Source: Flavobacterium sediminis
GTDB taxonomy: Bacteria; Bacteroidota; Bacteroidia; Flavobacteriales; Flavobacteriaceae
NCBI RefSeq assembly: GCF_003148385.1
Contig: NZ_CP029463.1
Location: 2,108,001-2,172,000, forward strand
DNA: 64,000 bases
Direction of reading: 5' to 3'
Part shown: positions 2,955-22,698 of the stretch, one piece after another
How the letters are laid out: every line of letters starts with the position of its first letter
How positions within the stretch are numbered: position 1 is the first letter of the stretch
Notes under the pieces: model-generated
What the model was told of the DNA's origin: nothing
What the model saw: only the letters and a program-made list of their open reading frames with translations
Databases searched by the model: none
Program-made: the position numbers and the translations under genes

Positions 2955-3239
2955 GTCTTTATATTTTAATTCTATTGTTTTCTTTTAAAGAAAACTTTCG
3001 GTTTTTATCCTTAACCCAAAACGGAAAAAAGGTTAGTTAACAGAAGCATTCAAATGGTTAACTGTTTTGTTTCATTGGCTTATTATAAACCAGTGATCAC
3101 ACAGAAAAGCAAAAGAACGGTTTTGAAAGCGAAGCCCTTTTCAGGTTTCTTCGTAAGTGTTTCTCAATTTCGAAAAATGTTGAAACAGATAAAAACCAAA
3201 TGTTTTCAATTTTTTGCACCTTTTTTAAGAGTAATGCCT

Positions 3240-3351
3240 CTCTCGTAAAAACAGATTTACAGTCTGCTTTTGGGACTCTACCAACTGAGTTAACGCCTCT
3301 GCAGGCATATCGGAATCGAACCGATGACCACCAAATGGAAAGTTACAAGAA
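3240..3351 (-). ncRNA. Permuted tRNA-like unit (Glu-TTC on reconstruction)
   Basis: In RNA order the 3' half (3342 to 3303) comes first: loop CTTTCCA, stem TTTGG, variable TGGTC, T-arm ATCGG-TTCGATT-CCGAT, acceptor ATGCCT. A 4-base loop follows, then the 5' half (3298 to 3269): acceptor AGGCGT, TA, D-arm ACTC-AGTTGGTA-GAGT, C, stem CCAAA. ATGCCT pairs with AGGCGT, and CCAAA pairs with TTTGG. Rejoined, the halves give a full cloverleaf with anticodon TTC (a one-base register shift would read TCC, Gly). Flanks at 3343-3351 and 3240-3248 pair over 9 bases (two G-U). An extra Tyr-like anticodon hairpin (loop CTGTAAA) sits between the 5' half and the outer helix. Function is inferred. Confidence 0.6.
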
Positions 3352-3440
3352 CCTTAATCTTGCGCGTTTAGCCGCTCCGCCATACTACTTTCGTAGTAGC
3401 AGGATTCGAACCTGCGAAACTAATGGTAGATCGTTTTTTG
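3346..3440 (-). ncRNA. Second tRNA-like unit, acceptor strands linked by a GAAA tetraloop
   Basis: RNA order is type II-like variable region (CTA-CCAT-TAG), T-arm GCAGG-TTCGAAT-CCTGC, then TACTAC-GAAA-GTAGTA, then TG, a Leu-type D-arm (GCG...CGC) and an anticodon arm CAAGA-TTAAGGT-TCTTG. The acceptor 3' strand of one tRNA-like pairs over 6 bases with the 5' strand of the next through a GNRA loop, the same permuted order as its neighbour. The anticodon AAG with G37 is Leu-like. Read as an ordinary tRNA from GTAGTA to the next T-arm, the acceptor stem does not pair fully. The 5' boundary is uncertain. Confidence 0.5.
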
Positions 3441-3473
3441 GAAAACAACCGCAAACCTCCAAGCCAAGTTGCA

Positions 3474-3509
3474 TAATGCTACTTCATACGTTTTACGTAA
3501 AGAGCATTA
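3474..3509 (-). ncRNA. Hairpin at the 5' side of the first tRNA-like array
   Basis: TAATGCT (3503-3509) and AGCATTA (3474-3480) pair perfectly, with an inner stem TACGT-AAA-ACGTA. A Trp-like hairpin (TTGTT-TTCCAAA-AACGA, loop reading CCA) lies just downstream at about 3428-3448. The upstream leader, to the operator at 3651, has no recognisable T-arm. Confidence 0.4.
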
Positions 3510-3650
3510 CATTAGTGCTATACAGAAACACCCAACAGGACTTGCTTGATATTTTTACCCTAATATTGTTATTTCGACGTTAGGAGAAATCTCATAATCT
3601 TTTGTATTCAAAGAACGTTTTCTTTATTACTGAACAAAGATTCAAAACGA

Positions 3651-3673
3651 AGTACGCAGTTATTTTGCGTAGC
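3651..3673 (-). promoter_or_regulatory. Operator A of the RNA-repair regulon
   Basis: Inverted repeat with arms TACGCA and TGCGTA around an AT-rich centre, matching three other sites at 20.3, 21.2 and 22.8 kb. As at those sites, on the minus strand it is followed at a fixed distance by an A-rich stretch and CTTTG. It lies upstream of the 3.3 kb array and slipin, and is most simply their regulatory site. The regulator is inferred to be the WYL protein at 23.4 kb. Confidence 0.65.
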
Positions 3674-3682
3674 AAAAAATAA

Positions 3683-4000
3683 TTATAATCCCATTCGTTT
3701 TTGATGTTCTTTATCTCGTACCTCTATAGCTCCGAAGGGACTTCCTTTAAAATAGCCGATGTTGACAAATCCGTTTTCTTCTGTTATTAAGGATTCTTTT
3801 TTGGTTACGGCTCCAGTATATTTAGAACCATATTGCCCAGTTATTTTTTTCGTTGCCGGATCAACGTCGCCCCATTGTGGTGTTTTACCGTTATAGAGCG
3901 GTTCTACAAAATAGATGATTCCGGTAATTCTTGACTTCATCAAAAATCTTCCTGTTTCATCTGTGTTGGTCAAAAAGCGTTTTACAATGTCTGGTCTCAT
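3683..4000 (-). CDS. Hypothetical protein inside the tRNA-like cluster
   Basis: 105 residues, no signal peptide or membrane segment, no domain I recognise. It is rich in Gly, Lys and aromatic residues (ITGIIYFVEPLYNG, NIGYFKGSPFGAIEV), suggesting a small beta-rich fold. It begins 38 bases past the Phe-type tRNA of the 4 kb cluster and ends 10 bases before operator A, so it sits between two RNA arrays on the same strand and may be co-transcribed with the upstream one. That position makes it a candidate part of the RNA-repair locus. It could also be an unrelated gene. Confidence 0.55.
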   Translation of the reverse strand: MRPDIVKRFLTNTDETGRFLMKSRITGIIYFVEPLYNGKTPQWGDVDPATKKITGQYGSKYTGAVTKKESLITEENGFVNIGYFKGSPFGAIEVRDKEHQKRMGL

Positions 4001-4037
4001 CTTCTTTTGTTTTTAATTAAACTTCAACTTCTTTTAG

Positions 4038-4111
4038 TGGAACAGATTCGAATCGAACGAATACCCCTTGTGCTTCAAACAAGTGTGCAACACCAAGTAC
4101 ACCACTGTTCC
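4038..4111 (-). tRNA. tRNA-Phe (GAA)
   Basis: Complete cloverleaf: acceptor GGAACAG/CTGTTCC, D-stem GTGT/GCAC with GG in the loop, anticodon stem CTTGT/ACAAG with loop TTGAAGC, T-arm ATTCG-TTCGATT-CGAAT, discriminator A. No CCA is encoded. The anticodon loop (G37, C38) is unusual for tRNA-Phe, so a role outside normal decoding is possible. Confidence 0.7.
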
Positions 4112-4117
4112 TTTTGT

Positions 4118-4190
4118 ACAGGAAGAGAGAATTGAATGCTCAAAATTCAGATCCTAAATCTGATGCGTCTGCCTGTTCTGCCATTCCTGC
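4118..4190 (-). tRNA. tRNA-Leu (TAG)-like
   Basis: Acceptor GCAGGAA/TTCCTGT pairs over 7 bases with one G-U. The anticodon stem TCAGA/TCTGA carries loop TTTAGGA (anticodon TAG, G37, as in Leu). Two features are abnormal: the variable region is too short for a class II Leu tRNA, and the T-stem has only its three outer pairs although the loop TTCAATT is canonical. Probably a degenerate or specialised tRNA. Confidence 0.6.
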
Positions 4191-4198
4191 AATTTTGT

Positions 4199-4281
4199 GG
4201 AAGTAATAAGATTTGCACTTATTCAGCATAAAAGCACTTGTTTTACAGACAAGCTCGGCTCTCTGACTCCGACGTACTTCC
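4199..4281 (-). tRNA. tRNA-Tyr (GTA)-like with lost elbow residues
   Basis: All four stems pair perfectly: GGAAGTA/TACTTCC, TCGG/CCGA, CTTGT/ACAAG, ATAAG/CTTAT. The anticodon loop is CTGTAAA and the variable arm is 14 bases, as expected for Tyr. However, the D-loop AGTCAGAGAG has no GG and the T-loop is TGCAAAT rather than TTCAAAT, so the D-loop/T-loop contacts that form the tRNA elbow should be missing. Secondary structure is kept while tertiary contacts are lost. Confidence 0.65.
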
Positions 4282-4418
4282 AAATTGTCTGAGAAGCAGG
4301 ATTGTTTACCTAATTTTATTATTTTTTTAGGTGTTCACGAATGCTTCGCATTTCGAATCTGCAATCTTCTACATCCAAAGAAGACAAGCAACCAATCGTT
4401 ATCTTCCCAGTTATTTAG
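4282..4418 (-). ncRNA. Degenerate tRNA-like remnant between the His and Tyr elements
   Basis: Contains a Ser-like anticodon hairpin (TCTTCT / AGAAGA, loop TTGGATGT, reading GGA) and a T-arm-like hairpin (TTGCA / TGCGA around GATTCGAAA) that overlaps a second hairpin (AATGC-GAA-GCATT). A further hairpin (ACCTAA / TTAGGT) follows. No matching acceptor strands were found. Limits are approximate. Confidence 0.35.
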
Positions 4419-4490
4419 GGTGTTTTCGGGAATCGAACCCTGTTCTTTGAATTCACAGTTCAATGCTTTACCAAATAAGCTAAAAACACC
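4419..4490 (-). tRNA. tRNA-His (GTG)-like
   Basis: Acceptor strands GGTGTTTT and AAAACACC pair over 8 bases, with a C at the 3' end consistent with the His G-1:C73 pair. D-stem GCTT/AAGC with TTGG in the loop, anticodon stem TTGAA/TTCAA, loop CTGTGAA. The T-loop TTCGATT is canonical but only three T-stem pairs form (GGG/CCC). One missing base or real degeneration would explain this. Confidence 0.6.
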
Positions 4491-4496
4491 ATTTGC

Positions 4497-4567
4497 GGCT
4501 TATACGGGAATGGAACCCGTGTTTCCTGAGAGACAGTCAGGTAGGTTAGTTAGTCCCTTAATAAGCC
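4497..4567 (-). tRNA. tRNA-Asp (GTC)-like with lost elbow residues
   Basis: Acceptor GGCTTAT/ATAAGCC, anticodon stem CCTGA/TCAGG with loop CTGTCTC, and T-stem ACGGG/CCCGT all pair perfectly. The D-loop has no GG and the D-stem is only three pairs (AGG/CCT). The T-loop is TTCCATT, with C where a purine is expected at position 57. As in the Tyr-like element, helices are conserved while tertiary contact residues are not. Confidence 0.65.
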
Positions 4568-4590
4568 AGTCCCTTTCTAAAGACTCATGT

Positions 4591-4663
4591 GATCCTGACA
4601 GGGGTCGAACCTGTAACCTTTCGCTTCGTAGGCGAATGCTCTATCCTGTTGAGCTACAGAATC
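4591..4663 (-). tRNA. tRNA-Arg (ACG)
   Basis: Fully canonical: acceptor GATTCTG/CAGGATC (one G-U), D-stem GCTC/GAGC with GG in the loop, anticodon stem TTCGC/GCGAA with loop CTACGAA, T-arm ACAGG-TTCGACC-CCTGT, discriminator A, no encoded CCA. Position 34 A would be edited to inosine. It is the first element of the 4 kb cluster, 13 bases past a terminator. This one could be an ordinary working tRNA. Confidence 0.85.
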
Positions 4664-4675
4664 TTAATTTTAGGC

Positions 4676-4706
4676 ATAAAAAAAGCACCTCTTTTTGAAG
4701 GTGCTC
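4676..4706 (-). terminator. Terminator of the 40-residue peptide gene
   Basis: Stem AGCACCTTC / GAGGTGCT with a T-run on the minus strand, 28 bases past the stop codon of the small ORF and just before the tRNA cluster. Confidence 0.75.
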
Positions 4707-4733
4707 CATAACGATACAATTGTATATAACAAT

Positions 4734-5531: not shown

Positions 5532-5987
5532 TTATGACCAATGACCGCTACCACCGCCGGTACCTAAAACAGTTGAAACAGATCCGGATTGGAAATGTCC
5601 TAATAAGTTAGAATGCTTGTCAAAAAACAATAAACTAGTATATACAGGAGTACAATTAAATTGAAAACTAACTGTATCCGAATATAATTTATTAATATCG
5701 TCAGTATAAACATCTCCGAACAAAGCTCCTCCTCCGGGTGAAGATACTCCTCCTGCATTTCCGTTAAAGGATTTCCCGTTTTTGATGTTGACCTGAAACT
5801 TCAGATAAAAGATCATGCTGGCTACACTACCATTTGCTCCGTATGAAGAAGTAGTAGCTGTTAAGCCTTTTTTTACAGATGCTATTGCTGCATCGTCCAT
5901 TTTTCCTGCTGTTGCCACATGAAAATCATGTGCAATCATTTCCGGGGTTACTTGCTGCATTTCTGCAGTGCCGTTTTTTTCAGACAT
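5532..5987 (-). CDS. VapA-like (Rhodococcus virulence-associated protein) family protein
   Basis: 151 residues. The C-terminal two thirds resemble the compact beta-barrel of Rhodococcus equi VapA-family proteins: a G-G-x-S-x-P-G-x-G-A-L segment, then LYSDTVSFQFN, FFDKHSNLLGHFQSG and a Gly-rich end (STVLGTGGGSG). The match is from memory of the family. Unlike VapA there is no signal peptide: the N-terminus is polar (MSEKNGTAEMQQVTP), so export would need another route or the protein is cytoplasmic. It is monocistronic with a 185-base gap to the response regulator. Such proteins alter host endolysosomes in R. equi; the role here is unknown. Confidence 0.7.
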   Translation of the reverse strand: MSEKNGTAEMQQVTPEMIAHDFHVATAGKMDDAAIASVKKGLTATTSSYGANGSVASMIFYLKFQVNIKNGKSFNGNAGGVSSPGGGALFGDVYTDDINKLYSDTVSFQFNCTPVYTSLLFFDKHSNLLGHFQSGSVSTVLGTGGGSGHWS

Positions 5988-13656: not shown

Positions 13657-14562
13657 TTATTTTTCAAAAATGACTTCATTTACAATAAATTGAGGAGGAT
13701 CAAAAGGTTCTCTTTCATATTTATTAATATCAAAACCAGAACCAACTCTCCAAATATCAATTTCAGGATAAACTATTGACATCATCATTGCAATGAAAGT
13801 AAAAGGCTTTGGACCTAACGGAGCAATAATAATGTTATAATCATCTTTCAATAAATAATATAATGAAGTTAATTTCCTTTCCAAATATAAGAGATTATCA
13901 AAAGGATAAGTAATAATATTTTTATCTTGCTCTAAGATATTTGAATTATTATCTTTAATAGTTTGAACAAATCTATTGTCTAAAGCTGGGTTTGTATAAA
14001 AAATATAAGTTAATTTTGGATCTAATTGATCAATTATACCTTGTGCCTTATTTTGTTCATAACCCAAACATACAATAAGTGCTTTTGGTTTGTTATTAGG
14101 AATTCTATATTTTCCTGGTAAAGGCTGAATATCTGTATTTGGCTTTGGAGGTAATGGCTCTGAATAAACAGAAGGTGTATAACTAAAAAAAGTCCTAACT
14201 TTTTTGAAATCAATATTAACTTCAGATAAATATAGAATTATTGAATAATACCAAGATTTAGTCATACACGAATAATCAATAAAGATGTTTATTTCATCTT
14301 TTTTAATTGAACTTATTTTTTCTTTTAAAAAACCAACAACTTCGTTATGGTTATTAATTATTAATTCCTCAACTCCTTCAATATTTTCAATTTTTGAGTT
14401 TGGATAATAAAAAGAATATGCTTTAACTATGTCATTGTTTTCTTTAATTTGATTATATGCAGAAAGCTTTCTCCTCTCAATATTATTTGCAAATAAAAAA
14501 ACATCTATAACAATGTCTGATATTTCATTTATGTCAATTTGTTTTCCAAATTTAACTTTCAT
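13657..14562 (-). CDS. Unknown protein, last gene of the putative defence operon
   Basis: 301 residues, no signal peptide or membrane helix. Two alpha/beta segments are suggested: an N-terminal one (IDVFLFANNIERR, then NIFIDYSCMTKSWYYSI) and a C-terminal one (KALIVCLGYEQNKAQ, then YNIIIAPLGPKPFTFIAM) that looks Rossmann-like. A Pro-rich linker at about 130-150 separates them. I do not recognise the family. The gene overlaps the ATPase by 4 bases, so it is translationally coupled and is probably the partner or effector of that ATPase. Confidence 0.65.
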   Translation of the reverse strand: MKVKFGKQIDINEISDIVIDVFLFANNIERRKLSAYNQIKENNDIVKAYSFYYPNSKIENIEGVEELIINNHNEVVGFLKEKISSIKKDEINIFIDYSCMTKSWYYSIILYLSEVNIDFKKVRTFFSYTPSVYSEPLPPKPNTDIQPLPGKYRIPNNKPKALIVCLGYEQNKAQGIIDQLDPKLTYIFYTNPALDNRFVQTIKDNNSNILEQDKNIITYPFDNLLYLERKLTSLYYLLKDDYNIIIAPLGPKPFTFIAMMMSIVYPEIDIWRVGSGFDINKYEREPFDPPQFIVNEVIFEK

Positions 14563-16352
14563 ACTTTTTGATTAAATAGGTTTGGTGAATTATCTATTTC
14601 ACTTGCATTTATTATCGTCTTTAAGCCAATAGAAGAACTTTTTCTAATAGGCAGTCTATACTCAGGATAGTATAAATATGACAACTTAAATTTTTTATTC
14701 TTAACTTCAAAATCAAAACTTTCATCATCAGAATCAATTAAAACAAATGCTCCTTGAAAAATGCCTTTTTCTAAAAGAATTATGTAATCATTTGAATTCT
14801 CTAAATCAAATTTAAATGTTGTACTTGGTTCTGGATAGAATTTTCTCCCTAATACTTGATCTTGAAAATAATTACCAATTTTACTAATAAATTCATTAAT
14901 TGTTAACGAAGAGTCTTCAAGTTTTACTGGAATGTTATTTATAGAATTAATAAAGCGTTTTGAAATATTAATAATTTCATCATACTGAATTGATAAATCT
15001 GTTTTTTCGATTGTAGTTTTTTGCAAAATTGAATTGGTCAAACCAATTAACCATCTAGGGTTTCCTTCACATATTTTTGTTAAAACTTCAATACCACTGA
15101 ATAATTCGACTGCTTTTTTTCTAGTTCTTAACTTTGGTTTATCTGAAGTTAAAATATTTGATTCAATAAAAAAATTCCTAAAATAAACATAGGGTTTAAT
15201 TTTTCTAAAGACCGAATCTTTTTGTAATGTTGCTTTTGGAATTGGATTTTTAGGATCTATGTCTTTAGAAATTAAATAATTTTTAAAAGACTGATCTTTA
15301 GATATAAGTTCTTTAATTTCTTGTATGTAAGGACTATCAAGATTATAGCTTTCATTTACTTTATCATCTAAGTACATATAATTTCCTCCAAAAAATTTTT
15401 TCGAATCTCTTGTATTATGCTTTTCAAATAACAAGGATTCAATTAATTCTTTTGAAAATTTCTCATTTGATCTCAAGTTCCACATTTTTATACAATCAAA
15501 ATCATTACCCACACTTGGAGAATATTCATCTTTAAAAATTTTTTCAATTTCTTTTGGTAAGATTGGACTAGAACTAATTTTATATAAAATCTTTTGATTA
15601 TTTCTACTTCTTAATGATTTGTATAATTTATCTTGTAACCAAGACGGTGCAAATTCTAATTCATCAAAACATAATGCCCACTTTTTTTCACTAGATATAT
15701 TATAAACTCTAATAAATTTATCTATAACTAAAGATAAGGAACTGTCAAAATTTAGATTAAAAAAATCATAGTTTGGTATATCCTGTTCATTATCATAATT
15801 AAAAATTACATCTTGAACTAATTGATTAACAAAGTCTATTCTTTTTAATATAGATTCTTTTACAAATTCTAACTTTGGTATAGTCTTTTCTAATTTCCAA
15901 TTATCAATTAAAAAATTTGATAATTCAATCTCTTTATCTAGATTTTCTTCATTTAATTCATATTGTATTATGTTTAAAAATGTATTGCATAGTGAAATAA
16001 AAACATTACTATTTACAGAAAATTTTGAAATTTTATCAGCAAAATTCCCAAACTTTTTAAGTTGTTCATCGTAAGCTTGTTCTTTTACATCCCAATAGAC
16101 ATCAGTTGAAATGTAAACCGCATAAAAAGGAATATTACTTTTTATGTCATTTGCTTTTTCATGTTTCCAATTATGTAAAGCAGGTAAAGTTAACATTTTC
16201 ATTAAAGTTGTTTTCCCGCAACCTCTAGCTCCTAAAATAATAGAATGTCTGTTTTTAATTAAAGCTTCAAAACTCTCAGAAAAAATAAATTTTTCTGCAA
16301 CCTGCTTAGGTTCAAGATATCTAGCATTATATGTATTGTAAAAATTACTCAT
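14559..16352 (-). CDS. Orc/Cdc6-like AAA ATPase of a putative defence operon
   Basis: 597 residues. Walker A is GARGCGKTTLM near residue 45 and a Walker B-like motif is ALCFDELEFAP near 225. A sensor-like segment (RSRNNQKILYKISSSPI) and a helical region with EGNPRWLIGLTN follow, as in Orc/Cdc6 or STAND-type ATPases. The C-terminal 130 residues have no recognised domain. It overlaps both neighbours by 4 bases. Codons are far more AT-rich than in flanking genes, suggesting horizontal acquisition. Confidence 0.75.
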   Translation of the reverse strand: MSNFYNTYNARYLEPKQVAEKFIFSESFEALIKNRHSIILGARGCGKTTLMKMLTLPALHNWKHEKANDIKSNIPFYAVYISTDVYWDVKEQAYDEQLKKFGNFADKISKFSVNSNVFISLCNTFLNIIQYELNEENLDKEIELSNFLIDNWKLEKTIPKLEFVKESILKRIDFVNQLVQDVIFNYDNEQDIPNYDFFNLNFDSSLSLVIDKFIRVYNISSEKKWALCFDELEFAPSWLQDKLYKSLRSRNNQKILYKISSSPILPKEIEKIFKDEYSPSVGNDFDCIKMWNLRSNEKFSKELIESLLFEKHNTRDSKKFFGGNYMYLDDKVNESYNLDSPYIQEIKELISKDQSFKNYLISKDIDPKNPIPKATLQKDSVFRKIKPYVYFRNFFIESNILTSDKPKLRTRKKAVELFSGIEVLTKICEGNPRWLIGLTNSILQKTTIEKTDLSIQYDEIINISKRFINSINNIPVKLEDSSLTINEFISKIGNYFQDQVLGRKFYPEPSTTFKFDLENSNDYIILLEKGIFQGAFVLIDSDDESFDFEVKNKKFKLSYLYYPEYRLPIRKSSSIGLKTIINASEIDNSPNLFNQKV

Positions 16353-17521
16353 TGTATTTTAAATAACATTTTTGGAAAATTAGAAATATGCGAATCCGGT
16401 TTAAGGCTTTCGTCTAACAATTTGCTTGTTAAATTTTCAATTTCATTAGGTATTAAATATTTGATTTCAGGAACACTATTTTCAATTTCTTCCCATTTAA
16501 TATATAATTTTTCCCCTATTAAAATTTTAATTTTTTTTACCAAACAATCTATTGTCAATTTATTTCCAAAACCTGCATGTGGTGCAAAACCAGTTTGATC
16601 AAAATTTTGAATCCATCCTTGTTTTGAAAAATATGTCCATGAAAAAATTTCACCTTTTACTTCATCTTTTTTTTCAATTTCAATAATATGAAAATAATTT
16701 CTTGAAGATGTCCATTTCAAATTTGTAACAGAAGAAAAACTTCCAGATGCAAAAATTGGTATTCTATAATCAATCTTTGATAAAGGATGGTATCTCAATA
16801 AAGGATGATGCTTGTGTCCATGAATTATTAAATCAAATTTAAACTTACCTAAAACTTCTAATAACTTTTCGGAATTTATTATCTTATCTTCTTCTCCCAA
16901 ATCTAAAACAGAATGATCTATAGGATGATGATGAGTCAAAACAATTTGAATTTTATTATCACTTATTTTAGCCATATGCTCATCAATAAAATTTATCATA
17001 TTCTCATCTATCTCACCACTTTTAGCAGAAACTTTATTATAATGAAAATGACAACTATTAATTACTAGAACTCTAAAATTTTCTCGTTCAACAAAAGCAC
17101 AACCATTTGCCCAAAAATCTCTTCTACTATTTTCATCTCTTAAAGGGAAATTTTTTTTTATTCCTCTAGCATTTTTAAGACTATAACTAGAATAATTATT
17201 ATATGAATCTATATCATGATTTCCAAGAGTTGCAATTACTTCCTCAGAATTAAAAATACTTTGAATTTCTAGTACATAATTCCATCCAGAAATAAAACCT
17301 TGTAAATTAGATTTATTAGTAAAGTCACCTGGACAAATTATAAGATCTACCTTTTCGTCTTTTAAAACACTAGCTAGACTCTCAATTGGGTGGTCATTTT
17401 CTCTCAAAGAATCCGTATATAAATACGTGTCATCCATTATTAAATTATTATCTAACTTAAATTCTTTAGGGTGACAATGTAAATCACTAACTACAGCAAC
17501 TCTTAATTTTCTTTCAATCAT
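16349..17521 (-). CDS. Calcineurin-like metallophosphoesterase of a putative defence operon
   Basis: 390 residues. All metal-binding motifs are present in order: VVSDLHCHP (D, H), CPGDFTN (D), LGNHDIDSY (N, H), LTHHHPI (H) and HGHKHHP (H, H). A 120-residue C-terminal extension without recognisable features follows the catalytic domain. It sits 10 bases after the methylase and overlaps the ATPase by 4 bases. The likely activity is hydrolysis of a phosphodiester in nucleic acid or a nucleotide; the substrate is not known. Confidence 0.85.
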   Translation of the reverse strand: MIERKLRVAVVSDLHCHPKEFKLDNNLIMDDTYLYTDSLRENDHPIESLASVLKDEKVDLIICPGDFTNKSNLQGFISGWNYVLEIQSIFNSEEVIATLGNHDIDSYNNYSSYSLKNARGIKKNFPLRDENSRRDFWANGCAFVERENFRVLVINSCHFHYNKVSAKSGEIDENMINFIDEHMAKISDNKIQIVLTHHHPIDHSVLDLGEEDKIINSEKLLEVLGKFKFDLIIHGHKHHPLLRYHPLSKIDYRIPIFASGSFSSVTNLKWTSSRNYFHIIEIEKKDEVKGEIFSWTYFSKQGWIQNFDQTGFAPHAGFGNKLTIDCLVKKIKILIGEKLYIKWEEIENSVPEIKYLIPNEIENLTSKLLDESLKPDSHISNFPKMLFKIQ

Positions 17522-17531
17522 TAAAATTTAA

Positions 17532-18440
17532 TTAATTATGTACTAAGACAACTTCTTCAACAACCTTATTTGCTATTAAAAGTTCATTTAATTGTTTTTT
17601 GTTTGAATTATTATTAATAAATCTTTTCACTACAACCCTATTAATTTCATAATCTGAATATAATTCGTCGAAAAAATGGTCTTCATTTTCTTTAGTCCTA
17701 ACATCAGAGTTACTCAAAATCCAATTACATTTTTTTAAATCTAATTCTTTGCAAAAATCTCTTAAGCGAATTTGCTCATTATCATTAAAGGTTGTGTGTG
17801 TGTAATTAAAACTAGAAACTTTATTAATTGGTTTATATGGAGGATCTAAATAAAATAAAGTTTGATCATCTACATATTTTAAACATTTATTATAATCACC
17901 ACATAGTATCTTCACTTTTTTCAGCATTTTACTTACATTTAGTATATTTACTTCATCACATATTAATGGTGTAATATAACTTCCTATAGGAACATTAAAA
18001 TTATTATTTTTATTAACCCGATACAATCCATTAAAACAAGTTCTATTAAGGAATATAAAAAGTGCAGCTTGAGTAAGATTGTCTGAGCTTCTCAAATTAA
18101 ACAAAGAACGTTGATTCATATAGAATTCTTTTCTACTATCTTTATCTTTTTCAAACGAATAAAATTTCTCTTGATAAACTTTTAAAATTTCTATTAATTC
18201 ATTTGGAAATTTTTTAATTACTTTATAAGTATTGATTAAATCTGAGTTAATGTCGTTAATTATAATCCTTTCTATGTTTGAATAGTTGTTTAACATCCAA
18301 AATAAAACGGAGCCACCTCCTACAAAAGGCTCAATGTAAGTTATATTTTTATTCTCAAAATTTATAGGTAAGAGCTTCTTAATTTCAGGTAACAATCTAC
18401 TTTTTCCTCCTGCCCATTTCAAAAAAGGTTTTGCTTGCAT
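17532..18440 (-). CDS. Dam-like adenine-N6 DNA methyltransferase (D12 class)
   Basis: 302 residues. The N-terminal KWAGGKSRLLPEI and the SAM-binding EPFVGGGSVLFW match the D12/Dam family, and catalytic motif IV is DPPY (FYLDPPYKP). A target-recognition region lies between. The expected product is m6A, with GATC the usual Dam target, but specificity cannot be read directly. It is first in a four-gene operon and probably marks self DNA for the downstream ATPase/phosphoesterase module. Confidence 0.88.
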   Translation of the reverse strand: MQAKPFLKWAGGKSRLLPEIKKLLPINFENKNITYIEPFVGGGSVLFWMLNNYSNIERIIINDINSDLINTYKVIKKFPNELIEILKVYQEKFYSFEKDKDSRKEFYMNQRSLFNLRSSDNLTQAALFIFLNRTCFNGLYRVNKNNNFNVPIGSYITPLICDEVNILNVSKMLKKVKILCGDYNKCLKYVDDQTLFYLDPPYKPINKVSSFNYTHTTFNDNEQIRLRDFCKELDLKKCNWILSNSDVRTKENEDHFFDELYSDYEINRVVVKRFINNNSNKKQLNELLIANKVVEEVVLVHN

Positions 18441-18791: not shown

Positions 18792-20213
18792 TTAATCCTC
18801 TCTACTACCATCATCTGCCATTCGCACCATTTTAGGCGTAAATGTAGCGACTACCTCTACTAAAGCTTCTTGGTTTGCCATCACTTGGTTGATGTCTTTA
18901 TACGCCATAGGCGCTTCGTCCAGTCCGGCACCAATTAAAGTTACGCCATGATCTTTTAAAATGGCTTTCATCTCATTTCGGGTAATGTTCTTAATGGCTT
19001 GTGTTCTGCTCATTTGTCTTCCTGCACCATGTGATGCGGAATGTAAGGCTTCGGTTTCCCCTTTTCCACGAACCAAAAATCCCGGAGCGGTCATACTTCC
19101 CGGAATGATTCCCATCACACCTTCTGCGGCTGGTGTTGCTCCTTTTCGGTGTACGATCACTTCTTCGCCGTTATGGATCTCTTTCCACGCAAAGTTATGG
19201 TGGTTCTCTACTTTGGCTAAAACGGTTGCTCCTAACGCTTTGGCTATTTTGTTATGAATCACTTCATGACAAGCCGAGGCATAATCGCCTGCTAAGTTCA
19301 TAGCCATCCAATATTCCTGACCTAATTCGGTATCCAAACCTAAATAGGCTAAGTTTTTTGCCTTTTCCGGAAGTTTACAGTTTGCTTTGGCCAATTTGGT
19401 ATAATGTCCGGCAATTGTAGCACCAAAACCTCTGGAACCCGAGTGTGTCAACAAAGCGACATATTTTCCTTTCGGGATGTTTAACACGGTATCTTCTTTT
19501 TCAAATTCAATGATGCCAAACTCTACAAAGTGATTTCCGCCACCGGAACTTCCCAATTGCGACCAGGCTTTGTCTTTTAACTCTTGTATGAATTTGCTGT
19601 TCGCAAAGTCTTTACGTTCCAATACCTCATGATCGGCTTTGTATTGTCCGTGAAATCCATGTCCGGCTCCGAATTTAGTATGTGCGACCAATTCTCTTTT
19701 GAATTTGGCTTCGTTCTCGAAATAAAAGAACTCCGGAATATCATACACCGACAACGCCATTCTACACCCGATATCTACCCCAACTCCATAAGGAATGACC
19801 GCATTTTTAGTGGCTAAAACACCGCCTATTGGCAATCCATAGCCTTGATGCGCATCGGGCATTAAAGCTCCGGCAATGGTAACCGGTAATTGCATGGCTA
19901 TTTCCATTTGTTTTCTTGCTCCTTCTTCAATATGGTCTTCACCATACATCACAAAAGATGATGGATTTTCATTTAATGCAATATAATCTTCCGGTTTTTC
20001 ATTAGCTTTTTCAATAATGGCTTGCGCTAAAGCTCCAAATAATGCATGATCTAAAAAATCATCCGGTTGCGCCAAAACCTTTTCATAGTTCTCCAACATT
20101 TGTTCTTTGGTAAAACCGGTTCTCTTACGGTTGCATTTTAAAGCGATTCCTATTAAACTTCCTTCTGCATATCCTAATGCTAATAAATCGTTTCCGTTGA
20201 TTGCTGTGTTCAT
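18792..20213 (-). CDS. rtcB: RtcB RNA-splicing ligase
   Basis: 473 residues from the chosen ATG at 20213 (MNTAINGNDLLALG); a longer ORF start at 20267 falls in the leader after the promoter. Signature segments are all present: GVGVDIGCRM (metal ligands), SSGGGNHFVEFG, LTHSGSRGFG, KVENHHNFAW, HRKGATPA and the C-terminal SASHGAGRQMSR. RtcB seals 2',3'-cyclic phosphate or 3'-phosphate RNA ends to 5'-OH ends using GTP and Mn2+. Operator B lies upstream, and upstream of that is an array of split tRNA-like sequences that are plausible substrates. Confidence 0.95.
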   Translation of the reverse strand: MNTAINGNDLLALGYAEGSLIGIALKCNRKRTGFTKEQMLENYEKVLAQPDDFLDHALFGALAQAIIEKANEKPEDYIALNENPSSFVMYGEDHIEEGARKQMEIAMQLPVTIAGALMPDAHQGYGLPIGGVLATKNAVIPYGVGVDIGCRMALSVYDIPEFFYFENEAKFKRELVAHTKFGAGHGFHGQYKADHEVLERKDFANSKFIQELKDKAWSQLGSSGGGNHFVEFGIIEFEKEDTVLNIPKGKYVALLTHSGSRGFGATIAGHYTKLAKANCKLPEKAKNLAYLGLDTELGQEYWMAMNLAGDYASACHEVIHNKIAKALGATVLAKVENHHNFAWKEIHNGEEVIVHRKGATPAAEGVMGIIPGSMTAPGFLVRGKGETEALHSASHGAGRQMSRTQAIKNITRNEMKAILKDHGVTLIGAGLDEAPMAYKDINQVMANQEALVEVVATFTPKMVRMADDGSRED

Positions 20214-20310
20214 AATCCTAAATTTAATTCGTTTTTTTTGCAAGCCCAATGTATTCCCCCGACACATTGGGCATACTGCCCTTTGTTTGATGCAACAAAG
20301 GTTTTACCTA

Positions 20311-20354: not shown

Positions 20355-20547
20355 TGACCTTAATGAGACTCGAACTCATATTCCCTCTCGGGCATTACGG
20401 CTGTAAATACGCTTCCCTACTTTTCCTTACAATTTCGGTGCATCTGTAAACTCTACCCATTAGTCCGCGCAGGTCTAATCGGAATATCCGTAAACTCAAT
20501 GGTAAGTAATATTTTGCCACCGGCTTTTCCTTTTAAGCTACAAGGTC
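20355..20547 (-). ncRNA. Interrupted tRNA-like element (array unit vi)
   Basis: The acceptor strands GACCTTG (20541-20547) and TAAGGTC (20356-20362) pair over 7 bases, the D-arm GCTT-AAAAGGAA-AAGC and the T-arm ATGAG-TTCGAGT-CTCAT are intact, and a class II variable arm (CCC-GAGA-GGG) is visible. Between the D-arm and the variable arm lie about 120 bases instead of a 17-base anticodon arm. The insert contains complementary segments (CTTACCATT / AATTGTAAG, one mismatch) and the repeated word GAGTTTAC. It looks like a tRNA with an intron-like insertion. The exact anticodon could not be fixed. Confidence 0.5.
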
Positions 20548-20576
20548 ATTTTTTATTTTAAAAGAGGTAATATTTA

Positions 20577-20625
20577 GGAATGGTTTAAAATTCTTTGGAC
20601 GAAGGAACCATTTCCTGACGACACT
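20577..20625 (-). ncRNA. Short helix-bounded unit iv of the tRNA-like array
   Basis: TGTCGT is followed by helix strand GGAAATGG, then TTCCTTCG, about 16 bases, and the matching strand CCATTCC (one bulge). It shares the TGTCGT-helix-nTnCTTCG layout with four other units but encloses no complete tRNA arm. Confidence 0.4.
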
Positions 20626-20646
20626 CTTTTTTTAAGAGCAATTATC

Positions 20647-20711
20647 TATAAGTGATCTTTTAGGACTCGAACCTAATTACATCAACCAACGAAGTAACAC
20701 TTATAAACGGC
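20647..20711 (-). ncRNA. tRNA-like unit v with complete T-arm
   Basis: Outer helix TATAAGTG / CACTTATA (8 bp) encloses TTACTTCG and a perfect T-arm (TTAGG-TTCGAGT-CCTAA). No D-arm lies inside. The upstream word is GCCGT instead of GTCGT. This looks like a 3' tRNA half bounded by the common flanking helix. Confidence 0.45.
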
Positions 20712-20738
20712 ATCTTATATATGAAAAAGTAATAAATG

Positions 20739-20790
20739 GCAAGAGTAGCGTTAGATTTTAAGTCGAAGTAGCTCTTGCACACGACATTTT
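20739..20790 (-). ncRNA. Short helix-bounded unit iii of the tRNA-like array
   Basis: TGTCGT, helix GCAAGAG / CTCTTGC (7 bp), then CTACTTCG and a Leu-type anticodon-loop sequence (CTTAAAA, reading TAA). Only about 26 bases are enclosed, so the unit could encode just an anticodon loop segment. Confidence 0.4.
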
Positions 20791-20816
20791 CCATTATTGT
20801 TAAAAGAAGTAAAGGC

Positions 20817-20940
20817 GATAAAAGTGTATATAATAAGCGGGGCTTGTCTTTGCCAGAGTCGAACTGGATAGCCTTGCCGGTTTTACGACTTCGCTATTCC
20901 TCCCCTAAAATGAGACGAAGGAACTTTTATCTACGACATT
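20817..20940 (-). ncRNA. tRNA-like unit ii of the array
   Basis: Outer helix GATAAAAG (20924-20931) / CTTTTATC (20817-20824), 8 bp, preceded by TGTCGTA and followed inside by TTCCTTCG. Inside are GGGG...CCCC acceptor-like ends, a hairpin ATAGC...GCTAT with an inner GTCG/CGGC stem, and a T-arm CCAG-TTCGACT-CTGG (20853-20867). A full cloverleaf could not be reconstructed. A Lys-like loop ATTTTAG near the start is possible. Confidence 0.45.
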
Positions 20941-20969
20941 CTTTTATAATTCTAAACAAGGTAAAAGGC

Positions 20970-21097
20970 AATAAGTGACTAATCGTGCTCTACCACTGAG
21001 CTACTCTCCCGTATAAATTGATATGGATTTGTGGAAGAGACGGGATTCGAACCCGCGACCTCGTCGTTAAAAGCGAAGTAGCACTTATCTACGACAC
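20970..21097 (-). ncRNA. Permuted split tRNA-Lys (TTT), array unit i
   Basis: RNA order: flank GTGTCGTA-GATAAGTG-CTACT; 3' half (21076 to 21033) TCG, loop CTTTTAA, CGACG, AGGTC, T-arm GCGGG-TTCGAAT-CCCGT, acceptor CTCTTCC; 22-base spacer; 5' half (21010 to 20984) acceptor GGGAGAG, TA, D-arm GCTC-AGTGGTA-GAGC, A, CG; flank ATTAGT-CACTTATT. The acceptor pairs over 7 bases (one G-U). Joining ...CG to TCG... completes the anticodon stem CGTCG/CGACG, so the ligated product is a fully canonical tRNA-Lys with GG in the D-loop. The flanks pair over 8 bases (GATAAGTG/CACTTATT), bringing the two ends together. rtcB lies downstream. Confidence 0.7.
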
Positions 21098-21150
21098 TTG
21101 TTTGTATTTTTAATTTATCAATGAACGAATTGTTTTGCAAAGGTTTTAAA

Positions 21151-21180: not shown

Positions 21181-22698
21181 TTATAGCTTAATCTGATTGA
21201 TATATTCCAGAGCATTGTTTTGGTTTTCCAAAGCATGCAAGATATCAAATACTTTATCTGACCAACCTGCGATCAGATGCACATCATTTCGTCGAATATC
21301 AAGTGGTGTATTTCCATGACCTGCCAGATCAAACAAATACAGTTTAGCACTTGGAGCTATCTTTTTATAACGATTCCATGAATCTGCAAATGAATGATGC
21401 GTTGCATTGCTGTTCCATAGCTGTACATCTGTAAATAACATTACTTTATCTACTATTTCATTTCTTCGGATTAGGTCTTCTATCACTAAATAACCATTAG
21501 TGGAATAACCTACCTCACCTTCTCGTCTGTAAAAAATATCAATGTTAGACAAGATGCCGGCTTTAGGCATACTGATGGATTTCCAAGTATCTCCGAACAT
21601 ACCGCTGATTACATTTTTACATCGACTCTGCATTAACATTCCTAACATCAGACCTATGTCATAAAGCAATACTTTACTTTTTGAAGAGATCGGATATTGC
21701 ATAGAACCGGAAACGTCGCAAGCGATCACTACCGAGGTATTACTGTCAAACCCTTTAATATTAGCCGCACTAACCTTAACCGCTTGTTCTAAAGCTTCTA
21801 AAACAACAGAGGTATGACCCGAGTAGATTGTTTTAACTTCTCGATAAGCAGCTAAAAAACGGAACGGCAATTGTTTTGAAGCGGCAACAGCTTTTTCATT
21901 TGCAAGGTAATGACACACTTTTTCGATATGAGCACCCGAAACTTTAGCTTCTAAAATATTTCTCAGATTGCGTAGCAGAGCCATATAGCCTACTTTATTG
22001 CTATCGATCAGTTCTTCCCATTTTTGAGTAACTGCTCTTAATCTTTCGGCTTCAGTACGGAAACGTTGTTGCCCTAATTGCGACAATTCTGTTTCCCAAG
22101 TATAAGGCGTTGGTAACGTATCCGAAGCGATCTTGTTAAAGATCAACTGCTGTGCCTCATCTTTAGCTTTAGGATGTGTTAAAAACAAAGCGTCTTTCAA
22201 CGAAACCCGCCCTTTACGGTTGTACTTTGCAAATTGATATTCATCAAATCGATTGAATGAAGTAGCCACACCTTTCTGGAGCTGTTTAGACAAACGATTT
22301 AGTCTTTTTGTTCCGGTTCTTGCATTAGCCATCTGATAATAAGCCAGTAACTCGGTGATCTCATCAGCACGTTGAATAACTTGGACGATCATTTTGCTGA
22401 TTAAAGAATCTCCCGAATAAATTTTAGCTAATTCTACAACCAATACTAACGGAACAGAACGCAGATGCATTTCATTACGGGCATATATTGCAAGTTTAGC
22501 AACAAAAAACGGATTACACTTTTGAATCAAACCTTTAATTCTTTTCAAACGCTCAGAGTCTTTTTCATAAAATGAAGTGCTTAGACTCGTAGTTACTACA
22601 GCAGAATACAATTCATATTCAGGATTCAACTGAAAAGCCGTTGAGTGTTCGTAATTAACGGTTTTGTTTTTCTGTCTTGTTAAAAAATTAAATTTCAT
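21181..22698 (-). CDS. rsr: Ro60-like TROVE-domain protein (Rsr)
   Basis: 505 residues, normal for bacterial Ro orthologues. The N-terminal two thirds are helical HEAT-like TROVE repeats; the C-terminal part is a von Willebrand A-like domain with a MIDAS motif (ACDVSGSMQYP, about residue 330) and the metal-site segment LFTDVQLW. Ro proteins form rings that bind the ends of misfolded RNAs and Y RNAs, which in bacteria can mimic tRNA. The gene lies between operators D and C and next to rtcB, the pairing known from bacterial RNA-repair operons. Confidence 0.93.
   Translation of the reverse strand: MKFNFLTRQKNKTVNYEHSTAFQLNPEYELYSAVVTTSLSTSFYEKDSERLKRIKGLIQKCNPFFVAKLAIYARNEMHLRSVPLVLVVELAKIYSGDSLISKMIVQVIQRADEITELLAYYQMANARTGTKRLNRLSKQLQKGVATSFNRFDEYQFAKYNRKGRVSLKDALFLTHPKAKDEAQQLIFNKIASDTLPTPYTWETELSQLGQQRFRTEAERLRAVTQKWEELIDSNKVGYMALLRNLRNILEAKVSGAHIEKVCHYLANEKAVAASKQLPFRFLAAYREVKTIYSGHTSVVLEALEQAVKVSAANIKGFDSNTSVVIACDVSGSMQYPISSKSKVLLYDIGLMLGMLMQSRCKNVISGMFGDTWKSISMPKAGILSNIDIFYRREGEVGYSTNGYLVIEDLIRRNEIVDKVMLFTDVQLWNSNATHHSFADSWNRYKKIAPSAKLYLFDLAGHGNTPLDIRRNDVHLIAGWSDKVFDILHALENQNNALEYINQIKL

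What the first reader, a model, noticed from the sequence alone, without database searches (positions are those of the whole stretch)
20970..21097. Permuted, split tRNA-Lys gene beside an RNA ligase
The 3' half precedes the 5' half. Their acceptor strands pair over 7 bases across a 22-base spacer, and the flanks pair over 8 bases. Joining ...CG to TCG... completes the anticodon stem and gives a canonical tRNA-Lys(TTT). Permuted tRNA genes are established in some archaea and red algae; I know of no bacterial example. RtcB, encoded just downstream, joins exactly such ends.
Basis: partly seen in the sequence, partly recalled or inferred. Interest (0 to 1): 0.92.

Follow-up and report, generated by a model that had tools for sequence, protein, structure and literature searches.

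The report
Ro60-linked Y RNA mimicking whole tRNA
The supposed inside-out lysine tRNA gene is most likely a bacterial Y RNA, a small RNA encoded beside the Ro60 protein that imitates a tRNA; unusually, this one and many relatives seem to imitate the tRNA's anticodon loop too, with different loops in different species.

Summary
The permuted tRNA shape is real: minus strand 20953-21103, the only strict module in the window and in 0 of 3000 shuffles. It is not a tRNA-Lys gene. It is a YrlA-type bacterial Y RNA. It lies between a Ro60/TROVE gene and rtcB, is the first of five Y units, and has a conserved basal stem around a permuted T-acceptor-D module. Y-core units of this kind occur in the window and 69 of 80 named Ro60 loci. 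A model of it reaches 65 bits in 16 of 296 phylum genomes, all among the 24 with TROVE. The genome has two ordinary tRNA-Lys(TTT) genes; the 'anticodon' varies among relatives (eight triplets).

The surprise is the anticodon arm. In 35 of 105 distinct units a 7-nt loop closes on a stem whose 5' strand is interrupted by the Y stem. Position 33 is T in all 19 distinct loops, and 7 of the 19 equal genuine anticodon loops (shuffle P about 0.002). So it is a Y RNA that appears to mimic a whole, nicked cloverleaf: a new variant of a known kind. RtcB splicing is unsupported; decoy or docking functions are inferred.

The parts
20953..21103 (-). Whole YrlA-type Y RNA: basal stem plus permuted tRNA-like module
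   Evidence: Model R1 153.3 bits (model built including it); Rfam YrlA 35.5 bits over 20962-21091; alignment A1
21097..21103 (-). Basal stem P1, 5' strand AAACAAG
   Evidence: Pairs with 20954-20960; compensatory changes in A1
20954..20960 (-). Basal stem P1, 3' strand CTTGTTT
21089..21096 (-). Conserved Y-core motif TGTCGTAG, proposed Ro60-binding side
   Evidence: TG.CGT invariant in the 26 rows of A1; shared with variations by the other Y units of the array; Ro60 binding inferred
21082..21088 (-). Upper Y stem P2, 5' strand ATAAGTG
   Evidence: Compensatory changes
20971..20977 (-). Upper Y stem P2, 3' strand CACTTAT
21074..21079 (-). ACTTCG, end of the Y-core motif; its TCG doubles as nt 29-31 of the nicked anticodon stem
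   Evidence: TACTTCG invariant in the 26 rows of A1; CTTCG in all five Y units of the array
21067..21073 (-). Anticodon-like loop CTTTTAA
   Evidence: Identical to the loop of the genome's tRNA-Lys(TTT); variable among relatives, T33 constant in hairpin units
21062..21066 (-). 3' strand of the anticodon-like stem, CGACG (nt 39-43)
   Evidence: 27:43 paired in 99 of 102 and 28:42 in 101 of 102 distinct units; shuffle maxima 63 and 80
21040..21056 (-). T arm
21033..21039 (-). Acceptor stem, 3' strand CTCTTCC
21011..21032 (-). 22-nt acceptor spacer (loop); 0-28 nt in the 114 Y-core units, 8 nt commonest
21004..21010 (-). Acceptor stem, 5' strand GGGAGAG
20987..21001 (-). D arm GCTCAGTGGTAGAGC
20984..20985 (-). 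nt 27-28 (CG), 5' start of the anticodon stem, followed by the Y stem
   Evidence: Covaries with 42-43
20801..20945 (-). Y RNA unit 2 (Y stem plus a different T-arm-containing domain)
   Evidence: R1 29.9 bits; Y motif
20721..20793 (-). Y RNA unit 3 (minimal stem-loop)
   Evidence: R1 29.3 bits; Y motif
20630..20719 (-). Y RNA unit 4 (Y stem plus T-arm only)
   Evidence: R1 35.5 bits; Y motif
20559..20629 (-). Y RNA unit 5 (minimal stem-loop)
   Evidence: R1 22.2 bits; Y motif
21181..22698 (-). Ro60/TROVE protein gene (rsr-like), 505 aa
   Evidence: PF05731 E 4.1e-30
18792..20267 (-). RtcB RNA ligase gene, 491 aa
   Evidence: PF01139 E 1.2e-81

Best explanation
A YrlA-type bacterial Y RNA of about 150 nt, encoded between Ro60 and RtcB as the first of five Y RNA units. 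Its two ends form a basal stem carrying the conserved core that I infer binds Ro60. Its middle is a circularly permuted tRNA cloverleaf: T arm, acceptor arm closed by a spacer loop, D arm, and an anticodon arm whose 5' strand is interrupted between nt 28 and 29 by the Ro60-binding stem. Shown by sequence: the architecture, its linkage to Ro60, covariation of the Y stem and of pairs 27:43 and 28:42, and, in about a third of the units, a 7-nt loop with constant T33. That the local hairpin 29-31/39-41 really forms is supported but less certain. Inferred from the YrlA literature: the RNA stays unspliced, binds Ro60, and its tRNA-like module is a docking site for tRNA-binding proteins (modifying enzymes; PNPase in the reviewed RYPER model). 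The anticodon-like loop, absent from the description of YrlA that I could read, would extend that mimicry to proteins that read the anticodon arm.
For: Between Ro60 and RtcB. Rfam YrlA match end to end. Y-core units in the window and 69 of 80 named Ro60 loci. R1 at 65 bits or more, a threshold set after seeing the list: 16 of 296 genomes, all 16 among the 24 TROVE genomes and within about 2.5 kb of the TROVE match. Basal stems P1 and P2: 6 of 15 pairs have compensatory changes. 27:43 and 28:42 paired in 99 and 101 of 102 distinct units against shuffle maxima of 63 and 80. Bridge to curated YrlA: two L166 units exceed Rfam's cut-off (73.2 and 73.0 bits), and two L164 units (62.8 and 59.4 bits) carry GCA-7nt-TGC hairpins at the same position as the window's. 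Anticodon arm: 7-nt loops 35 of 105 against 0-4 for each other size tried; T33 in 19 of 19 distinct hairpin loops against 21 of 48 elsewhere.
Against: The window's own score is below Rfam's YrlA cut-off, and the YrlA model also rings on tandem tRNA genes at about 30 bits. The L166 units above the cut-off lack the 7-nt hairpin. T, acceptor and D pairing was a selection criterion of my scanner, and A1 holds 26 of 43 units selected for the full arm. The hairpin evidence weakens without the TCG/CGA units: full triples 8 against shuffle mean 2.7 and maximum 9, though paired cells are 115 against maximum 104. The window's minimum-energy fold does not form it: it pairs that TCG with nt 27-29 (CGA) instead, an alternative possible in 16 of the 35 hairpin units and 5 of the other 70. 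Folding of the single sequence is not remarkable (z -1.98). Seventy of 105 units fail my hairpin criterion; 26 of these have 2 of the 3 pairs. No expression, Ro60-binding or processing data.
Confidence: 0.88

Rival explanations
1. A true permuted tRNA-Lys gene: the transcript is cut at CG| and |TCG, the ends are sealed by RtcB into a circle, and RNase P and tRNase Z open the acceptor to give tRNA-Lys(UUU).
For: Perfect 5-bp stem and a loop identical to tRNA-Lys; rtcB on the same strand; RtcB in 35 of 35 genomes carrying the arm without rtcB nearby; the acceptor is followed by AC rather than CCA, as after other tRNA genes of this genome (CCA found for 4 of 36 compared).
Against: The anticodon varies; position 37 is a pyrimidine in 5 of 19 distinct loops, including the two commonest, against 4 of 80 loops parsed from ARAGORN tRNAs; two canonical tRNA-Lys genes; the body resembles Val and Gly more than Lys; no splicing endonuclease family; no bulge-helix-bulge by inspection; the flanks are a conserved Y stem; 70 of 105 related units do not form the full arm.
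Confidence: 0.03
2. A decoy or sensor of anticodon nucleases: the Y RNA presents a copy of a vulnerable anticodon arm, is cut in place of or alongside the real tRNA, and RtcB repairs it or the cut reports damage.
For: 7 of 19 distinct loops equal real anticodon loops (P 0.0022); T33 constant; linkage to RtcB (28 of 80 Ro60 loci have rtcB in the roughly 4 kb fetched downstream); Hughes et al. 2020 (PMC7790460, passages read) suggest that the YrlA tRNA-like domain might be a competitive inhibitor of an anticodon nuclease and report that it is not itself a substrate.
Against: I did not search for a nuclease and none is known here; in Salmonella YrlA is reported not to be cleaved; 12 of 19 distinct loops do not equal a real loop in the set, and the commonest Chryseobacterium loops differ at position 37.
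Confidence: 0.15
3. The anticodon-like loop is a relic or a by-product: the module descends from a tRNA, and TCG-loop-CGA persists because CTTCG is part of the Ro60 motif or pairs with nt 27-29 instead.
For: CTTCG occurs in all five Y units of the array; 24 of 35 hairpins share the one stem CG|TCG / CGACG; the window's minimum-energy fold uses TCG with nt 27-29.
Against: Alternative triples GCA/TGC, CGC/GCG and CGA/TCG keep the 7-nt loop and T33; nt 27-28 vary (AA, GG, GA, CA and others) together with 42-43 while TCG stays, which does not fit TCG pairing with 27-29 in general.
Confidence: 0.25

Closest known systems
YrlA bacterial Y RNAs (Rfam RF02553; Chen et al. 2014 and Wang et al. 2018, cited in PMC8394870, not read by me)
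   Same: Encoded next to Ro60 (often with RtcB); basal stem; tRNA-like module with T, acceptor and D arms in that permuted order (Rfam alignment); units above Rfam's cut-off occur in the same phylum (L166).
   Different: Scores below Rfam's cut-off; 22-nt acceptor loop where the Rfam consensus has about 3 nt; a 7-nt anticodon-like hairpin inserted where the Rfam consensus has none; different Y-core sequence (TGYCGTAG / TACTTCG).
Salmonella rsr-yrlBA-rtcBA RNA repair operon (PMC7790460, passages read)
   Same: Ro60 homologue, Y RNAs and RtcB together.
   Different: Among 12 proteins of the window scanned no RtcA or RtcR family was matched; five Y units; rtcB was not found downstream in 52 of 80 related Ro60 loci (L118 and L124 of these end soon after Ro60).
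Permuted tRNA genes of archaea and algae (PMC4033280, passages read)
   Same: 3' part precedes 5' part, acceptor closed by a spacer.
   Different: No bulge-helix-bulge seen, no splicing endonuclease family found, variable anticodon, ends pair as a conserved Y stem.
Permuted tmRNA (Rfam RF04321)
   Same: T arm, spacer and acceptor 5' strand in that order; weak match, 23.4 bits.
   Different: Score far below the cut-off of 47; tag frame and pseudoknots were not examined.

Membership tests
YrlA-type bacterial Y RNA | Encoded beside a Ro60/TROVE gene | tested here: met
   PF05731 adjacent; the 16 genomes with R1 at 65 bits or more all carry TROVE nearby
YrlA-type bacterial Y RNA | Long stem formed by the 5' and 3' ends | tested here: met
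   P1 and P2 with compensatory changes
YrlA-type bacterial Y RNA | tRNA-like module with T, acceptor and D arms | tested here: met
YrlA-type bacterial Y RNA | Rfam RF02553 gathering score (69 bits) | tested here: not met
   35.5 bits; none at gathering in 12 related loci; relatives in L166 reach 73. I therefore file it as a YrlA-type variant, not as a member of the curated Rfam family
YrlA-type bacterial Y RNA | Binds Ro60 | not testable with these tools
   Needs immunoprecipitation or binding assay
YrlA-type bacterial Y RNA | tRNA-type modifications (D, pseudouridine) | not testable with these tools
   Needs RNA analysis
Permuted tRNA gene | 3' half upstream of 5' half with pairing acceptor strands | tested here: met
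Permuted tRNA gene | Bulge-helix-bulge at the termini | tested here: not met
   By inspection of sequence and fold: the termini continue into the Y stem, with no two 3-nt bulges around a 4-bp helix
Permuted tRNA gene | tRNA-splicing endonuclease in the genome | tested here: not met
   PF01974: 0 of 1; rings in 4 of 14 control genomes, all archaeal
Permuted tRNA gene | Conserved decoding identity | tested here: not met
   Eight anticodon triplets in 43 units; joined product closest to tRNA-Val
Permuted tRNA gene | Ligated or circular tRNA product | not testable with these tools
   No RNA data

The most novel reading that the evidence does not exclude
Bacteroidota carry Y RNAs that mimic a complete tRNA cloverleaf, anticodon loop included, with the Ro60-binding arm built into a break of the anticodon stem; lineages swap the loop to copy different real tRNAs, making the RNA a Ro60-bound decoy or damage sensor for anticodon nucleases within an RtcB repair pathway.
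Probability: 0.2. Interest if true: 0.78.

Novelty: new variant of a known kind. Interest (0 to 1): 0.5.

Why it matters
It turns an apparent first bacterial permuted tRNA gene into a known class, and so saves a wrong claim. It also suggests that tRNA mimicry by Y RNAs can include the anticodon arm, in a form that changes identity among species. What Y RNAs and Ro60 do beside RtcB is open: Hughes et al. (PMC7790460, passage read) state that they did not address it. A copied anticodon loop points to testable partners, namely enzymes that read or cut anticodon arms. The window's Y RNA and those of 12 related loci are not found by Rfam at its YrlA cut-off, so they are probably missed in annotation, and in one of 16 related loci (L076) ARAGORN even calls part of it a tRNA-Glu.

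Tried and rejected
Rejected: (1) tRNA-Lys gene, see rival 1. (2) Permuted tmRNA: only 23.4 of 47 bits. (3) The Rfam YrlA hit as proof by itself: the model also rings on tandem tRNA genes (120 of 149 family genomes have some match at E<=1, none above cut-off, and 11 of 14 control genomes ring), so I relied on context, the Y stem and R1. R1 too matches tandem tRNAs (228 of 296 genomes at E<=0.001; the 64.4-bit hit L165 reads as two tandem tRNA-Lys genes), hence the 65-bit line, which I set after seeing the list. (4) That RtcB is missing where the RNA lacks rtcB as a neighbour: false, RtcB is in 35 of 35 such genomes. (5) The 5' half as an ordinary tRNA: Rfam tRNA hits of 29.5-32 bits in L076, L114 and L142 overlap the Y RNA; the one shown residue by residue, L076, has unpaired positions in the acceptor. 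(6) A sigma-70 promoter for the array: one site found, on the other strand, against 2.8 expected; this scan does not suit Bacteroidota promoters (recalled).

Counts and rows dropped: the named loci are the best 80 of 478 that encode a Ro60 relative. The Y-core filter removed 21 of 135 candidates; most read as tandem tRNA-like genes, but at least L092 7830 and L099 6374 look like Y units that my motif spelling missed. A1 took 26 of the 43 full-arm units; I left out 17, chosen by eye as near-duplicates of kept Chryseobacterium rows. Distinct hairpin units number 39 of 102 and 35 of 105 because motif filters, loci and the key for duplicates differ. The tRNA comparison used 36 of 48 ARAGORN tRNAs (mostly duplicate copies, and the window's four, left out). 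The tRNA loop dictionary comes from loci at hand, not from whole genomes.

Full report
Observation. Read on the minus strand, 21103 to 20953 gives 5'-AAACAAG TGTCGTAG ATAAGTG CTACTTCG CTTTTAA CGACG AGGTC, then a T arm, an acceptor 3' strand, a 22-nt spacer, the acceptor 5' strand, a D arm, ACG, ATTAGT, CACTTAT and, near the end, CTTGTTT. A strict permuted T-acceptor-D module occurs once in the window and in 0 of 3000 shuffles of the 913-nt intergenic region. ARAGORN finds four tRNAs in the window, none here.

Surroundings. The upstream gene on the same strand is a TROVE/Ro60 protein and the downstream one RtcB. Ro60 plus Y RNA plus RtcB is a known arrangement: PMC7790460 (passages read) describes the Salmonella rsr-yrlBA-rtcBA operon, and PMC8394870 (passages read) describes YrlA as a modular RNA with a basal stem that tethers the Ro60 homologue Rsr and a tRNA-like domain resembling the D, T and acceptor arms. 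Rfam's YrlA model matches 20962-21091 from its first to its last position, at 35.5 bits (cut-off 69). That score alone is weak, because the model also rings between tandem tRNA genes.

Relatives. The Ro60 protein brought 80 named loci (the best 80 of 478), mainly Flavobacterium, Chryseobacterium and Pedobacter. In 28 of the 80 an RtcB gene was found in the roughly 4 kb fetched downstream. A scan of 82 sequences (window, L062 and the 80) gave 135 permuted T-acceptor-D candidates, 114 of them with the Y-core motif, in the window and 69 of the 80 named loci. An alignment of 26 of the 43 units that form the full arm shows basal stems P1 and P2, T, acceptor and D arms with 98.7% of cells paired and 15 pairs with two-sided changes; slid versions pair in 41-56% of cells. 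T, acceptor, D and the anticodon arm were selection criteria, so the independent evidence is P1 and P2 (6 of their 15 pairs have two-sided changes) and, in the 102 distinct units of the whole set, 27:43 (99 paired, shuffle maximum 63) and 28:42 (101 paired, shuffle maximum 80).

Linkage to Ro60. A covariance model from that alignment (R1) searched in 296 phylum genomes gives full-length hits of at least 65 bits in 16 genomes. All 16 are among the 24 genomes with a TROVE gene, within about 2.5 kb of the TROVE match. The line of 65 bits was drawn after seeing the list; below it, hits from tandem tRNA genes come in. R1 also detects the four other Y units of the window's array. In L166, next to a weak TROVE match (24.4 bits with its neighbours), two units exceed Rfam's YrlA cut-off (73.2 and 73.0 bits); these two lack the 7-nt hairpin. 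Two units of L164 (62.8 and 59.4 bits) have the classical YrlA motif and carry hairpins GCA-CUGUUAA-UGC and GCA-CUACGGA-UGC inserted at the place where the window has its anticodon-like hairpin. This ties the window's RNA to YrlA.

Against a tRNA-Lys gene. The genome has two canonical tRNA-Lys(TTT) genes. Compared with 36 of the genome's 48 ARAGORN tRNAs, the joined product is closest to tRNA-Val (78%) and Gly (76%); tRNA-Lys reaches 65% and is outside the best 12. No tRNA-splicing endonuclease (PF01974) is found, while four archaeal controls ring. PMC4033280 (passages read) lists permuted tRNAs for archaea and algae and none for bacteria, with a bulge-helix-bulge at the termini, which I do not see here. 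On the other side, RtcB is present in all 35 genomes that have the arm but no rtcB nearby, so RtcB's role cannot be excluded by absence.

The anticodon arm. Across 105 distinct units, stems of three pairs stacked on 28:42 occur with a 7-nt loop in 35 units and with loops of 4, 5, 6, 8, 9, 10 or 11 nt in 4, 0, 2, 2, 1, 1 and 1. Four stem triples are seen, with several 27-28 partners: TCG/CGA 27, GCA/TGC 4, CGA/TCG 3 and CGC/GCG 1. Shuffling 3' triples gives 11.5 on average, maximum 21; without the TCG/CGA units the full triples are 8 against mean 2.7 and maximum 9, which is weak, while paired cells are 115 against maximum 104. T33 was not a criterion, yet it is T in 19 of 19 distinct hairpin loops, against 21 of 48 in units without the hairpin. 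Seven of the 19 loops equal anticodon loops of tRNAs found by ARAGORN in the loci at hand (Met CAT, Lys CTT, Asp GTC, Asn GTT, Glu TTC, Lys TTT, Pro TGG); column shuffles give 2.84 on average, P 0.0022 (with the window genome's tRNAs alone 5 of 19, P 0.0024). Position 37 is a pyrimidine in 5 of 19, against 4 of 80 loops in that ARAGORN set, which argues against decoding. Against the hairpin: the window's minimum-energy fold pairs the TCG with nt 27-29 instead, which 16 of the 35 hairpin units and 5 of the other 70 could do; the general covariation of 27-28 with 42-43, while TCG stays put, speaks for the cloverleaf pairing. In the units without the hairpin the cis stem is often longer (runs of 4 or more in 35 of 63), that is, the anticodon stem runs on into the Y stem.

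Mechanism. Shown: a Ro60-linked RNA gene with a Y stem and a permuted tRNA-like module, and sequence evidence for a nicked, complete cloverleaf in about a third of the units. Inferred: it stays unspliced; Ro60 binds the Y core; the cloverleaf attracts tRNA-binding proteins, as described for YrlA (DusA, TruB and PNPase in PMC8394870). The copied anticodon loop suggests a partner that reads anticodon arms. A decoy or sensor for anticodon nucleases fits the RtcB setting, and PMC7790460 raises competitive inhibition as a possibility while reporting that the YrlA domain is not a substrate of the nuclease in Salmonella. I give the decoy reading 0.15 to 0.2.

Novelty. Y RNAs with tRNA-like modules are known (Chen 2014 and Wang 2018 as cited in PMC8394870; neither was held). 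I found no mention of an anticodon-like arm in YrlA in the held library (searches; listings, and passages of PMC7790460, PMC8394870, PMC7824862 and PMC9569102), but the two key papers were not readable, so this is provisional. Verdict: new variant of a known kind.

Noticed in passing
window 20355-20562, minus strand; also L063:6956, L067:3863, L127:3025, L130:3286, L144, L145, L147: A conserved RNA-like stretch of about 195 nt just upstream of rtcB: tRNA-like acceptor GACCTTG/TAAGGTC, D arm and T arm, with a conserved insert of about 120 nt in place of the anticodon arm. No Rfam match. DNA matches in 6 of 296 phylum genomes (the window's own included), the weakest only 24 nt; none in the phage or plasmid collections. 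Single-sequence fold unremarkable (z -0.35).
   Followed up: partly
window 20559-20945, minus strand: Four further Y RNA units with different inserts (one with a GGGG...T-arm...CCCC domain, one with only a T arm, two minimal hairpins), suggesting modular Y RNA diversification.
   Followed up: partly
window 3220-4720, minus strand: A second array of odd or degenerate tRNA-like genes (ARAGORN: Phe, Leu, His, Arg; Rfam one more; further pieces at 3250-3417 ring in R1) next to an SPFH/Band_7 gene (1857-2954) and near an RNase_T-type exonuclease gene (1168-1716); other genes for these four tRNAs (Phe-gaa, Leu-tag, His-gtg, Arg-acg) exist elsewhere in the genome.
   Followed up: no
L092:1421-1560, L109, L116, L127, L130, L141 (and an ordinary-looking cluster of nine tRNAs in L086:2-1290): Tandem, apparently degenerate tRNA-like genes upstream of Ro60 in Chryseobacterium loci, with little room for an anticodon arm. 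In L127 ARAGORN finds none and Rfam two weak ones (38.3 and 30.6 bits).
   Followed up: no
window 13657-18440, minus strand: Downstream of rtcB on the same strand: an adenine methyltransferase, a calcineurin-like phosphoesterase, an ORC-CDC6-like ATPase and a CARF-type protein (PADLOC CARF6, E 2.8e-131), a cassette that looks defence- or signal-related.
   Followed up: partly
L076:5605-5673: ARAGORN calls part of the Y RNA of this Flavobacterium a tRNA-Glu, and Rfam's tRNA model scores it 32 bits: a likely source of misannotation.
   Followed up: partly
window 5532-5987, minus strand: Small protein matching Pfam R_equi_Vir (PF05526, E 7e-38) in what appears to be a flavobacterial genome.
   Followed up: no
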